A stretch of 64,000 nucleotides of DNA from Pasteurella canis (GTDB lineage: Bacteria > Pseudomonadota > Gammaproteobacteria > Enterobacterales > Pasteurellaceae). The notes beneath the pieces were generated by a model. That model was not told the origin of the DNA. It saw nothing but the letters and a program-made list of their open reading frames with translations, and did no database searches. Location of the stretch: NCBI RefSeq assembly GCF_900454865.1, contig NZ_UGTV01000015.1, positions 1,862,001 through 1,926,000 of the forward strand. The letters run 5' to 3'. Position numbers and translations under genes: made by a program. Positions within the stretch are counted from its first letter, which is position 1; the number at the start of each line of letters is the position of its first letter. Positions 10,229 to 44,993 of the stretch are shown piece by piece.

Positions 10229-11644
10229 ATGGAAAACTTCAAACATTTACCAGAACCATTTCGTATTCGTGTTATTGAACCTGTAAAAAGAACAACACGT
10301 GCATATCGTGATGAAGCAATTTTAAAAGCAGGTATGAACCCATTTTTATTAGATAGTGAAGATGTGTTTATTGATTTATTAACGGATAGTGGTACTGGTG
10401 CTGTCACACAAGAAATGCAGGCAGCCATGTTACGTGGAGACGAGGCTTATAGTGGTAGTCGCAGTTACTATGCTCTTGCTAATGCAGTGAAAGAGATTTT
10501 TGGCTATGAATATACGATTCCTACTCACCAAGGGCGTGGTGCGGAACAAATTTATATTCCTGTATTAATTAAAAAACGTGAGCAAGAAAAAGGCTTAGAT
10601 CGCAGTAAAATGGTGGTTTTCTCCAATTATTTCTTTGATACCACACAAGGTCATAGTCAAATCAATGGCGCTACAGTTCGTAACGTTTATACTAAAGATG
10701 CGTTTGATACCAGTGTCAATGCGGATTTTAAAGGGGATTTCGATTTAGAAAAACTTGAACAAGGTATTAAAGAAGTTGGTCCAGAAAATGTACCTTATAT
10801 TGTTTGTACGATTACTTGTAACTCAGCAGGTGGTCAACCTGTATCACTTGCAAATATGCGTGCGATGTATGAAATTGCACAGAAATACGATATTCCTGTA
10901 ATTATGGACTCTGCACGTTTTGCAGAAAATGCATATTTTATTCAACAACGTGAAGCAGGTTATAAAGAGTGGACAATTGAACAAATTACTTATGAAAGTT
11001 ATAAGTATGCTGATGCATTAGCAATGTCTGCGAAGAAAGATGCGATGGTACCTATGGGGGGGCTATTGTGTTTCAAAGATAAACGAATGGAAGATGTGTA
11101 TAACGAATGTCGTACGCTTTGTGTAGTACAAGAAGGCTTCCCAACTTATGGTGGTTTAGAGGGCGGTGCTATGGAGCGCTTAGCAGTAGGTCTACGTGAT
11201 GGTATGCGTCAAGATTGGTTAGCTTATCGTATTAATCAAATAGAATACTTAGTGAATGGTTTAGAAGAAATAGGTGTTGTTTGTCAACAGCCAGGTGGAC
11301 ACGCGGCATTCGTCGATGCAGGTAAATTATTACCGCATATTCCAGCTGATCAATTCCCTGCTCAGGCATTAGCATGTGAACTCTATAAAGTAGCAGGTAT
11401 TCGTGCGGTAGAAATTGGCTCATTCTTATTAGGGCGTGATCCAAAAACGGGTAAACAACTTCCTTGCCCAGCTGAGTTATTGCGTTTAACTGTACCGCGT
11501 GCAACCTATACGCAGACACATATGGACTTTATTATTGAGGCATTTAAGCAGGTAAAAGAAAATGCAGAAAATATTAAAGGGCTAACCTTTACTTATGAGC
11601 CAAAAGTGTTGCGTCACTTTACGGCACGCTTAAAAGAAGTATAA
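10229..11644 (+). CDS. tnaA: tryptophanase
   Basis: PLP enzyme that cleaves L-tryptophan to indole, pyruvate and ammonia. 471 residues, the standard length. The PLP lysine lies in [16 protein letters not shown] near residue 270; other family blocks are [21 protein letters not shown] and [12 protein letters not shown]. It sits 94 bases after tnaC and is followed by a strong hairpin and tnaB, giving the enteric tnaCAB order. The gene predicts an indole-positive phenotype. Confidence 0.97.
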
Positions 11645-11652
11645 AAAACTTA

Positions 11653-11680
11653 ATGCAGTTTCTGAAAACAGAAACTGCAT
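11653..11680 (+). terminator. hairpin after tnaA
   Basis: Perfect 12-bp stem (11653-11664 with 11669-11680), tetraloop AAAA, then TTTTCATTTT. It probably reduces read-through into tnaB. Confidence 0.85.
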
Positions 11681-11714
11681 TTTTCATTTTATTTCATAAA
11701 AAAGGAAAAGCATT

Positions 11715-12941
11715 ATGAAAAAGACGCCTTCAATTTTCGGTGGTGCCTGTATTATTGCCAGTGTGTGTGTCGGCGCAGGAATGCTAGGCTTACCAAGTTC
11801 TGGTGCAGGTGCATGGACAATTTGGTCCATTCTTACTATCTGCTTTACGATGTTAACAATGACAGTTTCAGGTTGGTTATTGTTAGAAGCTTATAAACAT
11901 TACGATCTTCGTGCTTCATTTAATACTGTAACTAAAGCGATGCTTGGTAATTCAGTAAATCTGATTAATAACTTAGCTGTTTATTTTGTGGGTGGTATTT
12001 TGCTTTATGCTTATACGACTGCTTCAGGTGGTATTTTAAGTGGATTAGCAGCGCCATTTTTTGAGCTCGATGCACGTATTTGGTCTGTCATTTTTGTTTT
12101 AGTTTTTTCGTTCTTTGTCTGGCACTCAACACGTATTGTTGACCGTGTATCTGTGATACTAATCGTGTTTATGTCATTGTCATTTGTGTTTAGTGTATTT
12201 GGTCTGACTGTAAATATTGATTTAGCGACTTTATTTGATACAAAAGGGGCTGATTCAAATTATGCAATGTATGCGATGGGACTGTTACCTGTGGCATTAA
12301 CTTCATTTGGTTATCACCATTCTGTTGCAACAATGCGTGCTTATTATAGTGATGAGTATAAAGCAAAATACGCTATTTTAGGGGGGACGGCGATTGCGTT
12401 AGCACTTTATTTATTATGGATTATCTCAATTTTTGGGAATTTACCACGTGATCAATTTGGTCCTGTACTTGAAAGTGGTGGTAATTTAGATGTCTTACTT
12501 GGTGCGCTCAGTAATGTGATTGAATCAGCATCAGTAAAACAAGCAATTAATGCATTTTCTATCGCTGCTATTTTATCTTCATTCATTGGAGTTGGCTTAG
12601 GAGTATTTGATTTCTTAGCAGACTTCTTTAAGTTTGATAATAGCAAACAAGGTCGTTTTAAATCTTGGGCAGTCACTTTTTTACCACCATTAATTTTATC
12701 AGTTTCTTTCCCACTTGGTTTCTTAAAAGCGATTGGTTATGCAGGTGCAGTTGCAACAATTTGGACTTGTATCATCCCAGCATTACTCGCCAGAAAATCA
12801 CGTACGATGCCAAATGGCGATATAGGATTTAAAGTTGCTGGCGGTAATTTCACAATTGTTGTTGTAATCCTATTTGGTATTGCTACAGCATTATTCCATT
12901 TCCTTGCGATGTTTAATATGCTACCAGTGTTTAAAGGCTAA
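11715..12941 (+). CDS. tnaB: tryptophan permease (TnaB type, HAAAP family)
   Basis: An 11-helix aromatic amino acid:proton symporter of 408 residues. The N-terminal GGACIIASVCVGAGMLGLPSS is the helix-1 signature of TnaB/Mtr/TyrP, and TSFGYHHSVATMRAYY matches the conserved TSFGFHGS region. Its place behind tnaA identifies it as the import partner for tryptophanase; tryptophan rather than tyrosine as substrate rests on that context. It is followed by a terminator at 12962-12978. Confidence 0.88.
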   Translation: MKKTPSIFGGACIIASVCVGAGMLGLPSSGAGAWTIWSILTICFTMLTMTVSGWLLLEAYKHYDLRASFNTVTKAMLGNSVNLINNLAVYFVGGILLYAYTTASGGILSGLAAPFFELDARIWSVIFVLVFSFFVWHSTRIVDRVSVILIVFMSLSFVFSVFGLTVNIDLATLFDTKGADSNYAMYAMGLLPVALTSFGYHHSVATMRAYYSDEYKAKYAILGGTAIALALYLLWIISIFGNLPRDQFGPVLESGGNLDVLLGALSNVIESASVKQAINAFSIAAILSSFIGVGLGVFDFLADFFKFDNSKQGRFKSWAVTFLPPLILSVSFPLGFLKAIGYAGAVATIWTCIIPALLARKSRTMPNGDIGFKVAGGNFTIVVVILFGIATALFHFLAMFNMLPVFKG

Positions 12942-41874: not shown

Positions 41875-43473
41875 ATGCAATATGAAAAACAATGTATTGA
41901 TAATGGACAAATTGTCATTGGAATCGAATTAGGTTCAACTCGAGTAAAAGCGGTCATTATTGATGTACATGGTGTGATTTTAGCAAGTGGTGATGCAGAT
42001 TGGGCAAGCCATTTCATTGATGGAAATTGGACTTATCATCAAACTGAAATTTGGCGAACACTACAACAAGCCTATCGCAATTTACAAATAAATGTGAAAG
42101 AAAAATATGCGACGTTGATTAAGCATGCCAAAGCCATTGGGGTGAGTGCGATGATGCATGGCTATTTACCATTTGATAAGCATGGTAACCAGCTTGTCTC
42201 TTTTAGAACTTGGCGCAATAATACAACAGCAGTAGCGGCACAACGCTTGACTGAGCGATTCAATTACCCTATTCCACAACGTTGGAGTATTGCACATCTC
42301 TATCAATCGATTTTAAATCAAGAAAGCCATATTCAGCATATTGATTATTTGACGACATTATCAGGCTATATTCATTGGCAATTAACGGGCGAAAAAGTGT
42401 TAGGTATTGGCGATGCATCAGGTATGTTTCCAATAGATACTAGTACGCTTAATTATGATGCAGAAATGATAGCCATTTTTGACCAGCAGATTGCCGAAAA
42501 ACACTTGCCATGGCAACTCGATAACATTCTTCCTAAGGTATTAGTGGCAGGTCAAAATGCGGGCAGATTAACGCCACAAGGCGCGTTATTGCTGGATCCA
42601 ACAGGAAATTTAGTTTCGGATATTCCGTTTTGTCCACCTGAGGGCGATGCTGGCACTGGGATGATTGCAACGAATTGCATTAAAGCAAAAACAGGGAATA
42701 TTTCTGCTGGTACATCAGTATTTGCTATGGTGGTGTTAGAAAAATCATTATCAAGAGTATATTCTGATATCGATCTTGTAACCACGCCAGCAGGGAAATT
42801 AGTAGCGATGGCACATGCTAATAATTGTACCTCAGATATTAATGCTTGGGTGAATTTAATTGGCGAAGCATTACAGGCTTTTGGTGTGAAAACAGATACA
42901 CAGACACTCTACCAAAAATTATTTTTAGCGGCTTTACAAGGTGACGAAGATTGCGGAGGACTACTTTCATATGGTTTTTACTCAGGTGAACATAGTCTTG
43001 GGCTTTCTGAAGGCTGTCCGATTTTTCTACATCCAGCAAATGCGCACTTTAATTTAGCGAATTTCATGCGCGTGCATTTATATAGTGCATTCGGTGCCAT
43101 GAAATTAGGAATGGATATTTTACGTGAAAAAGAACACGTCAATATTGAACACATGCTTGCTCATGGCGGAATGTTTAAAACAGAACATGTTGTGTCACAG
43201 ATTTTGGCTTCAGCATTAAATATTCCTCTAGTCACAATGAATACTGCGTCGAATGGTGGGGCGTGGGGGATTGCATTGTTAGCTAACTTTTTACATAAAT
43301 CTCAACACAAATCGTTAGAAGCTTATTTAGAACAAGAAATCTTTAATCAAGCCGACCTCACATTAGTTGAACCTGAACCGAGTGTTGTTGAAGGATATCG
43401 GGTGTTTATGCAACGCTACCAAAAAGGGCTTCCGATTGTAAAAACAGCACTTGATACAGGAGTAGTTAAATAA
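41875..43473 (+). CDS. FGGY-family carbohydrate kinase, substrate unknown
   Basis: 532 residues with the two actin-like domains of FGGY kinases: GIELGSTRVKAVIID (phosphate 1), SAMMHGYLPFD, GDASGMFPID, NISAGTSVFAMVV and HGGMFKTEHVV (adenosine region). The length and HGYLPF...FRTWRN block resemble L-ribulokinase/xylulokinase-like proteins often annotated only as FGGY kinase. No isomerase, epimerase or sugar transporter lies beside it; its neighbours are talB (own terminator) and a convergent nuclease gene. Likely links a pentose or pentulose to the pentose phosphate route, but this is a guess. Confidence 0.82.
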   Translation: MQYEKQCIDNGQIVIGIELGSTRVKAVIIDVHGVILASGDADWASHFIDGNWTYHQTEIWRTLQQAYRNLQINVKEKYATLIKHAKAIGVSAMMHGYLPFDKHGNQLVSFRTWRNNTTAVAAQRLTERFNYPIPQRWSIAHLYQSILNQESHIQHIDYLTTLSGYIHWQLTGEKVLGIGDASGMFPIDTSTLNYDAEMIAIFDQQIAEKHLPWQLDNILPKVLVAGQNAGRLTPQGALLLDPTGNLVSDIPFCPPEGDAGTGMIATNCIKAKTGNISAGTSVFAMVVLEKSLSRVYSDIDLVTTPAGKLVAMAHANNCTSDINAWVNLIGEALQAFGVKTDTQTLYQKLFLAALQGDEDCGGLLSYGFYSGEHSLGLSEGCPIFLHPANAHFNLANFMRVHLYSAFGAMKLGMDILREKEHVNIEHMLAHGGMFKTEHVVSQILASALNIPLVTMNTASNGGAWGIALLANFLHKSQHKSLEAYLEQEIFNQADLTLVEPEPSVVEGYRVFMQRYQKGLPIVKTALDTGVVK

Positions 43474-43519: not shown

Positions 43520-44359
43520 TTATTTTTGATAAACGATGCTATCCTCTTGTTGATTTTCAATGATCTGCTTTTCTTTGAGTAACTTCACGATTTCATTAAT
43601 TTTGGCAGTATTACCGCGAAGATTTAATTTAGATGCAATTTCATTTTTTAAGCTAGATAATTTCTGTGGTCTTTTTAGTTTTTCTCTTTTCAATAAAAAA
43701 CTCTCATATTTGGTATAGAGACTTGATAGATTAGTGATTTGATAATTAATTTTTTTATCTTTAATCACAATAAGCTGCTTATTTGATAGATTTTCTATAA
43801 TTTGAGGAATAAGTGTTTTGACCGTCGTTTGGGGGAGTGTTTTCACATTTGTTTGTGAATAGATATGGTTAGTCAGTTTTTCAACTGTTGTTGGAAGGTG
43901 TCGAATATCAGTTTTTGACATAAATTGCTGATATTCATTGGTGTATTTTTCTATATCTTGAGTGGAAAGCACAAATTCATTTTTTGCTGTCGTAGATTGA
44001 GTTTGCTCATTGTTCATCGGTGTGATAGAAATTAACTGACACTTTCTGGCGTATTTTTGGTTTTGAATATAATCACAAATACCTTGATATCCTTTGTCTT
44101 TAGAAATGACATCAAAGCTAATTTGTTTATCTGCCTCTTGATCTGCTTTACCTAAAAAATAAGCAAGATGAAAATCGAGATTGTTCTTAGAAACATTTTT
44201 TATCGTAATAAGATGAATATTGAGTTGATCATTAAATTTTTCCGATAAACTGATATATTGTTGTTGAGCACCAAGAAATAAATAGATTTTTTCATATTCA
44301 CCTAACTTAATATTATCTAATGAATGAATATTTTCATAATCAATAAAGGCATATTTCAT
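43520..44359 (-). CDS. PIN-like nuclease-domain protein with winged-helix-like C-terminal modules
   Basis: 279 residues from the ATG at 44359, which has AGGA 8 bases upstream (an in-frame ATG at 44374 would add five residues). The N-terminal ~125 residues carry the PIN/NYN acidic pattern: AFIDYEN (D7, E9, N10), NNLDFHLAYFLG (D62), FDVISKDKGY (D83, D88). Such domains are metal-dependent RNases. The C-terminal part has two similar helical segments with a short strand end, about 150-205 (VEKLTNHIY...IVIKDKKINYQI) and 225-277 (LSSLKNEIA...IIENQQEDSIVYQ), like winged-helix units. No partner antitoxin is visible. Lys-rich and AT-rich compared with neighbours. Function unknown. Confidence 0.75.
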   Translation of the reverse strand: MKYAFIDYENIHSLDNIKLGEYEKIYLFLGAQQQYISLSEKFNDQLNIHLITIKNVSKNNLDFHLAYFLGKADQEADKQISFDVISKDKGYQGICDYIQNQKYARKCQLISITPMNNEQTQSTTAKNEFVLSTQDIEKYTNEYQQFMSKTDIRHLPTTVEKLTNHIYSQTNVKTLPQTTVKTLIPQIIENLSNKQLIVIKDKKINYQITNLSSLYTKYESFLLKREKLKRPQKLSSLKNEIASKLNLRGNTAKINEIVKLLKEKQIIENQQEDSIVYQK

Positions 44360-44537
44360 TTTGATTGTCCTCATATAGTGAAAGTATTTTTAATACTCTC
44401 ATTAAAATATAAATCTTATTTATTGTAATTATTTTTTATTTTGGAAGATACTAATATATATAACGTTTAATAAATAGGGTATTATTTTAAGTTAAATTAT
44501 ATAAAGGCTATTTTATGGTGTTTTATGACTTTCAAGA

Positions 44538-44993
44538 TTATCTAAATACTTTCAATGTATTCAGAGAAATAAACTCACCTTTCAAATAATCCTTCACCGA
44601 TTCAATCACTAATGGGCTACGTTCACATTGTCCCGCTTGTTGGATATAGTGATAAAACTCTTCTAAGCTTAGCCATAGGCCACGTGTAATGTCAGGATCT
44701 TGCGGTTGGATAGGGTACCAATCGTCAAGTTCTACGACAAATGTGAAACGAAGAAAGTCAGTTTTACTGCGTGGGGCACTCCATTGATAGATTTTGATTA
44801 AACCTTGCATGTCTGCATGAATTCCTGTTTCTTCAAATAATTCACGTTTTGCTGCTTCAAGGAGAGTTTCATCAGTTTCTAAATGCCCAGCAGGTTGGTT
44901 TAAAGTTAGATTGCCATGTTCAAATTCTTCTACAAATAAAAACTTGCCTTTGCAATGGACAACACAAGCAAGTGTGATATGAGGTCTATGCAT
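44538..44993 (-). CDS. nudJ: Nudix hydrolase NudJ (phosphatase)
   Basis: 151 residues with a full Nudix box, GHLETDETLLEAAKRE followed by LFEETGI, matching GX5EX7REUXEEXGU. E. coli NudJ (YmfB) removes phosphate from HMP-pyrophosphate and nucleoside di/triphosphates. The neighbour rluE, 3 bases upstream, and divergent icd repeat the enteric ymfB-ymfC-icd arrangement, which supports the call. Confidence 0.9.
   Translation of the reverse strand: MHRPHITLACVVHCKGKFLFVEEFEHGNLTLNQPAGHLETDETLLEAAKRELFEETGIHADMQGLIKIYQWSAPRSKTDFLRFTFVVELDDWYPIQPQDPDITRGLWLSLEEFYHYIQQAGQCERSPLVIESVKDYLKGEFISLNTLKVFR

What the first reader, a model, noticed from the sequence alone, without database searches (positions are those of the whole stretch)
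43520..44359. PIN-like nuclease with two winged-helix-like C-terminal units and no obvious partner
The N-terminal acidic pattern (D7/E9/N10, D62, D83/D88) is that of PIN/NYN RNases, and the C-terminal half appears to contain two related nucleic-acid-binding modules. It is AT- and Lys-rich against housekeeping neighbours, convergent with an orphan kinase and lacks an antitoxin, so it may be an RNA-processing or defence effector. This is the best candidate here for undescribed biology.
Basis: partly seen in the sequence, partly recalled or inferred. Interest (0 to 1): 0.55.

Follow-up and report, generated by a model that had tools for sequence, protein, structure and literature searches.

The report
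Stand-alone PIN nuclease with winged helices
This bacterial gene most likely makes a stand-alone RNA-cutting enzyme with two nucleic-acid-gripping modules; its relatives travel on plasmids, often near the gene finO, and as integron gene cassettes, and what they cut is unknown.

Summary
In detail: the minus-strand gene 43520-44359 (279 aa) has an N-terminal PIN7 domain (Pfam PF18475, E 1.6e-21) and two related C-terminal winged-helix units. D7, E9, N10, D62 and D88 are invariant in 49 aligned proteins, this one included; D83 is not. The best solved-structure match of the N-terminus is the MARF1 NYN ribonuclease domain (Z 10.8). The C-terminal units match no recurrent Pfam family and not OST-HTH/LOTUS, yet the layout parallels the known bacterial NYN plus one-or-two OST-HTH stand-alone RNases (PMC2848206, passages). 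No partner gene recurs across lineages; at this site 4 of 6 genomes of the genus have the gene. FinO lies one or two genes upstream in 11 of 15 plasmid regions viewed, and 13 of 81 genes tested carry integron-cassette marks (rule relaxed after inspection), one directly beside an integron integrase. Best reading: a stand-alone, mobile, metal-dependent endoribonuclease targeted by its winged helices. Defence or toxin roles lack direct support; the substrate is unknown. A new variant of a known kind.

The parts
43520..44359 (-). Gene for a 279-aa PIN7 / double winged-helix protein
   Evidence: only PIN7 match in its genome at E up to 0.001
44024..44359 (-). PIN7 (NYN-like) nuclease domain, residues 1-112; D7, E9, N10, D62, D88 invariant
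   Evidence: PF18475, residues 5-100; 49-sequence alignment; model; MARF1 NYN Z 10.8
43964..44023 (-). Low-confidence linker, residues about 113-132
   Evidence: mean pLDDT 64 and 48 for residues 111-120 and 121-130
43742..43963 (-). Winged-helix unit 1, residues 133-206; pI of residues 131-208 is 9.3
43529..43729 (-). Winged-helix unit 2, residues 211-277; pI of residues 209-279 is 9.8
44360..44537 (.). 178-nt AT-rich gap (18.5% GC) between nudJ and the PIN gene; only 20-21 nt in three genus relatives
44538..44993 (-). nudJ (NUDIX), upstream neighbour and genomic landmark, not a functional partner on this evidence
41875..43473 (+). FGGY carbohydrate kinase, convergent neighbour, not a partner
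   Evidence: present without PIN in L128, absent next to PIN in L002-L004

Best explanation
A stand-alone, metal-dependent endoribonuclease. The PIN7 domain carries the active site (D7, D62, D88, with E9, N10, N60 as supporting residues) and cuts RNA; the basic winged-helix units, one in most relatives and two here, hold a structured or double-stranded RNA and so choose the substrate. It acts alone, without antitoxin or operon partner, like the bacterial NYN plus OST-HTH nucleases and eukaryotic MARF1 but with a different winged helix. It is an accessory gene spread by plasmids and integrons and kept under purifying selection. Shown here: domains, invariant acidic residues, duplication, absence of a recurrent partner, mobile forms among relatives. 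Inferred: RNA as substrate, metal dependence, the targeting role of the winged helices. Unknown: the RNA that is cut and the benefit.
For: PIN7 in 49 of 49 proteins scanned, NYN also matched weakly in 8 of 49; one long relative passes both the PIN7 and the NYN cut-off. Twelve invariant positions including D7, E9, N10, N60, D62, D88. Model of the N-terminus: MARF1 NYN first (Z 10.8, rmsd 2.9, 111 aligned; Z 11.1 for the one-unit model), VPA0982 NYN Z 8.9, Rae1 Z 8.0. The spacing between the second and third aspartate is 26 here; from the residue numbers in PMC11346440 (section 7) it is 26 in MARF1, 23 in VPA0982 and 25 in B. fragilis NYN, an enzyme shown there to cut ssRNA with Mn2+ and to need D13 (abstract). 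Profile alignment puts D62 and D88 on the conserved aspartates of the GKNxxD and SSD motifs of NYN (P 50%, E 1.6e-4). Winged-helix regions basic (pI 9.3, 9.8) against an acidic PIN domain (6.3); winged-helix hits include the RNA-binding SelB C-terminus. Selection: dN/dS 0.05-0.07 for PIN and 0.29-0.40 for the rest in three comparisons with the window gene (dS 1.4-2.1, near saturation); 0.065 and 0.09 for the closer pair G005/G004 (dS 0.23 and 0.76). Stand-alone: no neighbour family recurs across lineages; 13 of 81 genes have cassette marks, with no second ORF shared beyond near-identical copies.
Against: No biochemical evidence exists here. Foldseek E-values are all above 0.001. CARF domains (Csm6 Z 8.9) and an unrelated Rossmann-like protein (7lrn, 8.6) score close behind NYN, so the fold match alone does not prove a nuclease. 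The winged-helix matches mix DNA-, RNA- and protein-binding domains (LexA, GntR, SelB, cullin WHB, MCM), so DNA or protein binding is not excluded. pTM 0.49: no information on how the domains cooperate. The gene is absent from most genomes searched (present in 22 of 140 of the family) and broken in some (stops in G026; the same copy cut short in L041, L086 split), so it is dispensable.
Confidence: 0.68

Rival explanations
1. A defence or anti-mobile-element effector: a single-gene system that cuts phage or plasmid RNA (or host RNA, abortively) on infection, spread by integrons and plasmids as many defence genes are.
For: Mobile, accessory and patchy (22 of 140 Pasteurellaceae genomes, 13 of 43 genera); in L065 in an integron array that also holds a YefM-YoeB pair; beside a YhcG nuclease in L038; basic putative targeting domains.
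Against: No PADLOC model matches the window protein; no defence family among the recurrent neighbours identified, though neighbours were not scanned with PADLOC; no sensor or trigger domain; strong constraint on the PIN domain.
Confidence: 0.14
2. A plasmid and host RNA regulator: it trims or destroys particular structured or antisense RNAs; on F-like plasmids it acts on RNAs of the finO/finP or copA region.
For: FinO lies one or two genes upstream in 11 of 15 plasmid regions viewed, across variants only 35-41% identical to the Klebsiella one, and where the viewed stretch reaches it (L012, L111, L112, L163) repA follows.
Against: Position may be inherited from one ancestral plasmid; two IncFIB/IncHI1B-type plasmids, a Vibrio and a Providencia plasmid carry it elsewhere; the window copy has no finO or copA among the neighbouring genes recognised.
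Confidence: 0.1
3. Not a nuclease: a CARF-like or nucleotide-binding Rossmann domain fused to DNA-binding winged helices, i.e. a regulator like Csa3.
For: CARF structures at Z 6.7-8.9, Csa3 at 6.7.
Against: NYN ranks first by about 2 Z units; seven invariant D/E/N/H positions at nuclease places; PIN7 and NYN profiles match, no CARF family is listed.
Confidence: 0.05
4. A VapC-like toxin whose antitoxin was missed.
For: PIN fold; small gene; mobile relatives.
Against: The 13 copies with cassette marks hold no second ORF (ATG start, 30 codons or more) that recurs beyond near-identical copies; no recurring neighbour family (ORFs of 60 aa or more); the Pfam call is PIN7.
Confidence: 0.03

Closest known systems
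Bacterial LK-nuclease (NYN/DUF88) + OST-HTH proteins (PMC2848206, passages; own-genome example L120)
   Same: N-terminal PIN-superfamily nuclease followed by one or two winged helices; stand-alone, no conserved neighbours; lateral transfer
   Different: Nuclease is PIN7, only distantly alike (P 50%, E 1.6e-4, 45 columns); the winged helix shows no sequence likeness to OST-HTH (P 0.09%)
MARF1 / Limkain b1 (eukaryotes)
   Same: Its NYN domain is the best structural match; nuclease combined with winged-helix (LOTUS) domains; title and start of abstract of PMC6294520 seen in a search listing: an endoribonuclease
   Different: RRMs and eight LOTUS domains, eukaryotic; LOTUS/OST-HTH not matched here
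CRISPR-associated NYN ribonuclease of Bacteroides fragilis (PMC11346440; outline, abstract, sections 7 and 9 read)
   Same: Three-aspartate active site with nearly the same second-to-third spacing (25 against 26)
   Different: Encoded in a type III CRISPR system; the window gene has no such neighbour among the ORFs seen
Pfam PF18475 PIN7
   Same: Member by score
   Different: The model covers residues 5-100 only; the winged-helix tail is in no Pfam family that recurs among members

Membership tests
PIN7 (PF18475) | Profile score above the gathering cut-off | tested here: met
   77.3 bits against 34; 49 of 49 proteins match at E up to 0.01
PIN/NYN nuclease superfamily | Conserved acidic residues after strand 1, in the helix and after the next strand | tested here: met
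   D7, D62, D88 invariant in 49, at the end of E2-7, start of H60-75, after E81-85
PIN/NYN nuclease superfamily | Fold | tested here: met
   MARF1 NYN Z 10.8 and 10.5, 2qip 8.9; but a CARF fold also reaches 8.9
PIN/NYN nuclease superfamily | Metal-dependent RNase activity | not testable with these tools
   needs protein
Bacterial NYN + OST-HTH nucleases | OST-HTH/LOTUS domain | tested here: not met
   PF12872 is not among the seven families matched by any of 49 members at E up to 0.01, while L120 matches it at 7.4e-12; hhalign P 0.09% against a profile of only six OST-HTH proteins
Bacterial NYN + OST-HTH nucleases | NYN (DUF88) domain | tested here: inconclusive
   8 of 49 match NYN weakly, best E 3.1e-4; hhalign P 50%
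Type II toxin-antitoxin (VapBC-like) | Adjacent antitoxin gene | tested here: not met
   adjacent ORFs are nudJ and a kinase; no recurrent neighbour family in the 73 of 76 loci where the PIN ORF was placed; none in 13 cassettes
Known anti-phage systems | Match to a PADLOC model | tested here: not met
   0 families for the window protein
Integron gene cassette (some relatives) | ORF with attC at its 3' end and the complementary core site upstream, in an array | tested here: met
   13 of 81 genes under a rule relaxed after inspection; 0.49 expected from shuffled flanks; 1 of 328 control ORFs; repeats after the gene and other ORFs in 7 loci; integron integrase adjacent in L062 and 4.4 kb away in L060. 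The strict consensus found none
Integron gene cassette (window copy) | same | tested here: not met
   window, L002-L005, L011, L111, L112 negative

The most novel reading that the evidence does not exclude
A family of autonomous, mobile RNA-targeting nucleases whose undescribed winged-helix module recognises particular RNA duplexes: on F-like plasmids it sits near the RNA chaperone FinO and works on the antisense-RNA circuits of transfer or copy number, and as an integron cassette it gives other hosts the same RNA-silencing tool against competing elements. A plasmid-borne bacterial counterpart of MARF1-type RNA surveillance.
Probability: 0.12. Interest if true: 0.7.

Novelty: new variant of a known kind. 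Interest (0 to 1): 0.42.

Why it matters
3,168 of 72,556 plasmid records carry a relative, near finO in most of those viewed; annotation calls it only 'PIN domain-containing', 'NYN domain-containing' or hypothetical protein, and several of the records viewed are named for resistance genes (KPC, NDM, mcr). The same gene type as a one-gene integron cassette suggests that it works without a partner, which makes it a self-contained test object for stand-alone RNases in bacteria. If it acts on FinP or CopA it would touch plasmid transfer and copy control.

Tried and rejected
Strict attC scans found nothing above chance (RYYYAAC...GTTRRRY with 6 of 7 complementary; strict RYYYAAC box, 0 of 81). The relaxed box (any NNNNAAC) was chosen after looking at the flanks, so its 13 of 81 is post hoc; the shuffles and the 328 control ORFs used the same relaxed rule. 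The 44 of 134 other plus-strand ORFs in positive loci were counted with a looser 150-nt upstream range. The 81 are 73 loci plus window, L002-L005, L011, L111, L112; L002 and L035 are the same gene.

Presence of an integron integrase gene in the genome does not separate cassette from non-cassette copies: over the cut-off in 20 of 24 genomes searched, 10 of 12 with and 10 of 12 without the cassette marks (0 of 14 control genomes over the cut-off); L056 was not held and L071 not submitted. Only the linked integrases bear on it: L062, L060, and against it L058, where an integrase lies 3.4 kb from a copy without the marks.

Conserved-neighbour search (ORFs of 60 aa or more, blastp E 1e-6): the recurrent clusters that I identified were local synteny within delta-proteobacterial groups (MoaA-like, YchF GTPase, fructose bisphosphatase) and a NERD-domain gene in Marinobacter; most clusters were not identified. 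Phage origin: viral contigs gave no relative in two scans (few peptide patterns, so weak evidence); 1 of 50,697 phage records. PDB sequence search with the family profile gave only weak hits, among them histone H1/H5 winged helices at E 0.1. LOTUS domains did not show among the listed rows of the structure searches except Egalitarian-type entries whose domain I did not check; that is no evidence of absence. DNA search of E. coli genomes with the window gene: no match. Papers: searches for PIN7 with PIN domain, NYN classification, PF18475, integron with PIN or NYN domain, finO with PIN domain, NYN with winged helix returned nothing that, from titles and starts of abstracts, describes this family; supplements and most subscription papers were not searchable. 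The 2017 classification of the PIN superfamily (recalled) is not held and may describe it.

The unit tree rests on short units with support 0.83-0.89 at the key nodes and below 0.6 at several others; the history 'old duplication, later loss of one unit' is tentative.

Full report
What is there. The window interval 43520-44359 holds one minus-strand ORF of 279 codons, the only PIN7 match of its genome. Pfam PF18475 (PIN7) matches residues 5-100 at E 1.6e-21, 77.3 bits against a cut-off of 34. NCBIfam and PADLOC give nothing, PHROGs one weak match of unknown function (E 0.0078). The gene is AT-rich (28% GC against 38% for the window).

Relatives. Searches found it in 8 of 61 related genomes including its own, 22 of 140 genomes and 13 of 43 genera of the family, 13 of 274 genomes drawn across the class, own included, and 76 loci in named genomes (two peptide patterns only): Pasteurellaceae (Aggregatibacter, Actinobacillus, Histophilus, Lonepinella, Bisgaard Taxon 45 and one more), marine gammaproteobacteria, sulfur bacteria, enterobacterial plasmid or genome contigs, deltaproteobacteria and a few others. 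The contig of genus relative G005 and the Bisgaard Taxon 45 contig have the same length, 225,864, so the window most likely lies in that genus.

Architecture. Most relatives are about 180-210 aa: PIN7 plus one C-terminal unit. Of 90 entries scanned with a profile of the unit (a few are the same gene twice), 73 have one, 9 two (8 distinct genes), 8 none; six of those eight are short, truncated or broken ORFs. Two-unit proteins are those of the window's genus and Aggregatibacter and, with longer spacers, L031 and L032 from two genomes of one other gammaproteobacterial genus, so tandem units arose or were kept more than once. In a tree of units, unit 1 groups with the single unit of most Pasteurellaceae and unit 2 with the canonical unit of other gammaproteobacteria, which suggests an old duplication and later loss of one or the other; support is moderate.

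Active site. Over 49 proteins D7, E9, N10, G30, N60, D62, F63, H64, G70, D88, G90 and P156 are invariant. P156 lies at the conserved proline that opens winged-helix unit 1. The model (49 sequences, pLDDT 90.3, pTM 0.49) places D7 after strand 1, D62 at the start of the long helix and D88 after the next strand, as in NYN nucleases. The best aligned solved structures are the NYN domains of mouse and human MARF1 (Z 10.8 and 10.5), then a Csm6 CARF domain (8.9), VPA0982 (8.9), an unrelated Rossmann-like protein (8.6) and, further down, Rae1 (8.0); the one-unit model gives MARF1 11.1 and 11.0, Csm6 9.2, VPA0982 8.9, Rae1 7.9. Catalytic residues given in PMC11346440 (section 7) have second-to-third spacings of 26, 23 and 25; here 26.

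Winged helices. Each unit is modelled as helices followed by a beta hairpin. Matches are generic winged helices: SelB C-terminus (E 3.7e-3, Foldseek), MCM, cullin WHB, GntR, LexA. To test membership in OST-HTH, 9 OST-HTH loci were fetched and 6 usable proteins, one from the window's own genome (L120), were profiled. The nuclease halves align weakly but with the aspartates in register (P 50%, E 1.6e-4); the winged helices do not align (P 0.09%); the negative controls gave 0.74% and 0.54%, the unit 1 against unit 2 comparison 97.9%. So the protein works like, but is not, a NYN plus OST-HTH protein. That design was described as a probable stand-alone RNA-degrading enzyme with single or duplicated OST-HTH and no conserved neighbours (PMC2848206, passages).

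Genomic setting of the window gene. Three genus relatives have rluE-nudJ-PIN with talB convergent to it, PIN starting 20-21 nt after nudJ. In G001 nudJ is followed by talB, and in G003 by the FGGY kinase (the stretch ends inside it, so talB was not seen), both without PIN. The window has PIN and kinase, and a longer, very AT-rich nudJ-PIN gap. PIN and kinase thus come and go independently. The PIN domain is under strong constraint, the tail under weaker constraint; most of these comparisons have near-saturated synonymous sites.

Plasmids. 3,168 of 72,556 plasmid records have a relative (3,177 with a plasmid copy as query), mostly Klebsiella and Escherichia. In 11 of 15 regions viewed FinO lies one or two annotated genes upstream on the same strand: L011, L012, L111, L112, L159, L160, L161, L162, L163, L164, L165; in four it does not: L113, L114, L115, L166. 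These regions were picked from best-hit and evenly spread lists, several of one lineage, and the gene tables are incomplete, so the fraction is not an estimate for all plasmids. In E. coli genomes three variants lie on plasmids in 269 of 274, 223 of 225 and 159 of 160 places.

Integrons. Thirteen of 81 genes carry NNNNAAC at the stop codon and its exact reverse complement 24-27 nt before the start, as expected of a circular cassette; 0.49 expected from shuffled flanks, 1 of 328 control ORFs. The rule was relaxed after the strict consensus found none. Long repeats resembling attC follow the gene and other same-strand ORFs in seven of these loci (L047, L049, L053, L060, L062, L065, L066). In L062 (Alishewanella agri) the gene is next to an integron integrase (TIGR02249, 461 bits against 265) on the opposite strand; in L060 the integrase lies 4.4 kb upstream. 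Near-identical proteins occur in Alishewanella, Rheinheimera and Arsukibacterium. The window copy and the F-plasmid copies tested lack these marks. Integrase presence in the genome is not discriminating.

Interpretation. A cassette with one ORF argues against an obligate antitoxin or operon partner. With the conserved active site and basic winged helices, the most likely biochemistry is targeted RNA cleavage. What RNA, and whether the benefit is regulation, plasmid control or defence, cannot be told from these data.

Verdict. Real, correctly read in its anatomy, new in detail as far as the searches named here go (unclassified winged helix, finO vicinity, integron cassettes), known in kind. Confidence in a stand-alone endoribonuclease 0.68.

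Noticed in passing
G000:C1:1769764-1769925 (L120:1443-2286, minus): The window's own genome also encodes a classical NYN + OST-HTH protein, the known counterpart of the finding.
   Followed up: yes
window 41875-43473: An FGGY carbohydrate kinase sits between talB and the PIN gene; in G003 it follows nudJ without PIN, and it is missing at this site in G001, G002, G004 and G005: an independent presence/absence gene.
   Followed up: partly
L065:10843-11377: YefM-YoeB toxin-antitoxin pair near a PIN7 cassette (Arsukibacterium indicum); a ParD/ParE-like pair seems to lie at 11464-12137 (by eye only).
   Followed up: partly
L038:6000-12000: In an Actinobacillus MAG a variable region between genes that look like glyQ and glyS (by eye) holds PIN7, a YhcG nuclease, two unknown genes and four copies of a 70-nt repeat.
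   Followed up: partly
L031:2431-3261 and 139-2202: A NYN-domain gene lies directly beside a PIN7 protein with two winged-helix units; the latter passes both PIN7 and NYN cut-offs, a sequence bridge between the families.
   Followed up: partly
L081, L113: PIN7 copy followed by large, repeated Ig-like-domain genes on an IncFIB/IncHI1B plasmid (L113) and, judged by gene sizes only, the same layout in Klebsiella grimontii (L081).
   Followed up: no
L029:544-1827: A PIN7 domain followed in the same ORF by a sequence that looks like a REP-associated tyrosine transposase (by eye), possibly a fusion by insertion.
   Followed up: no
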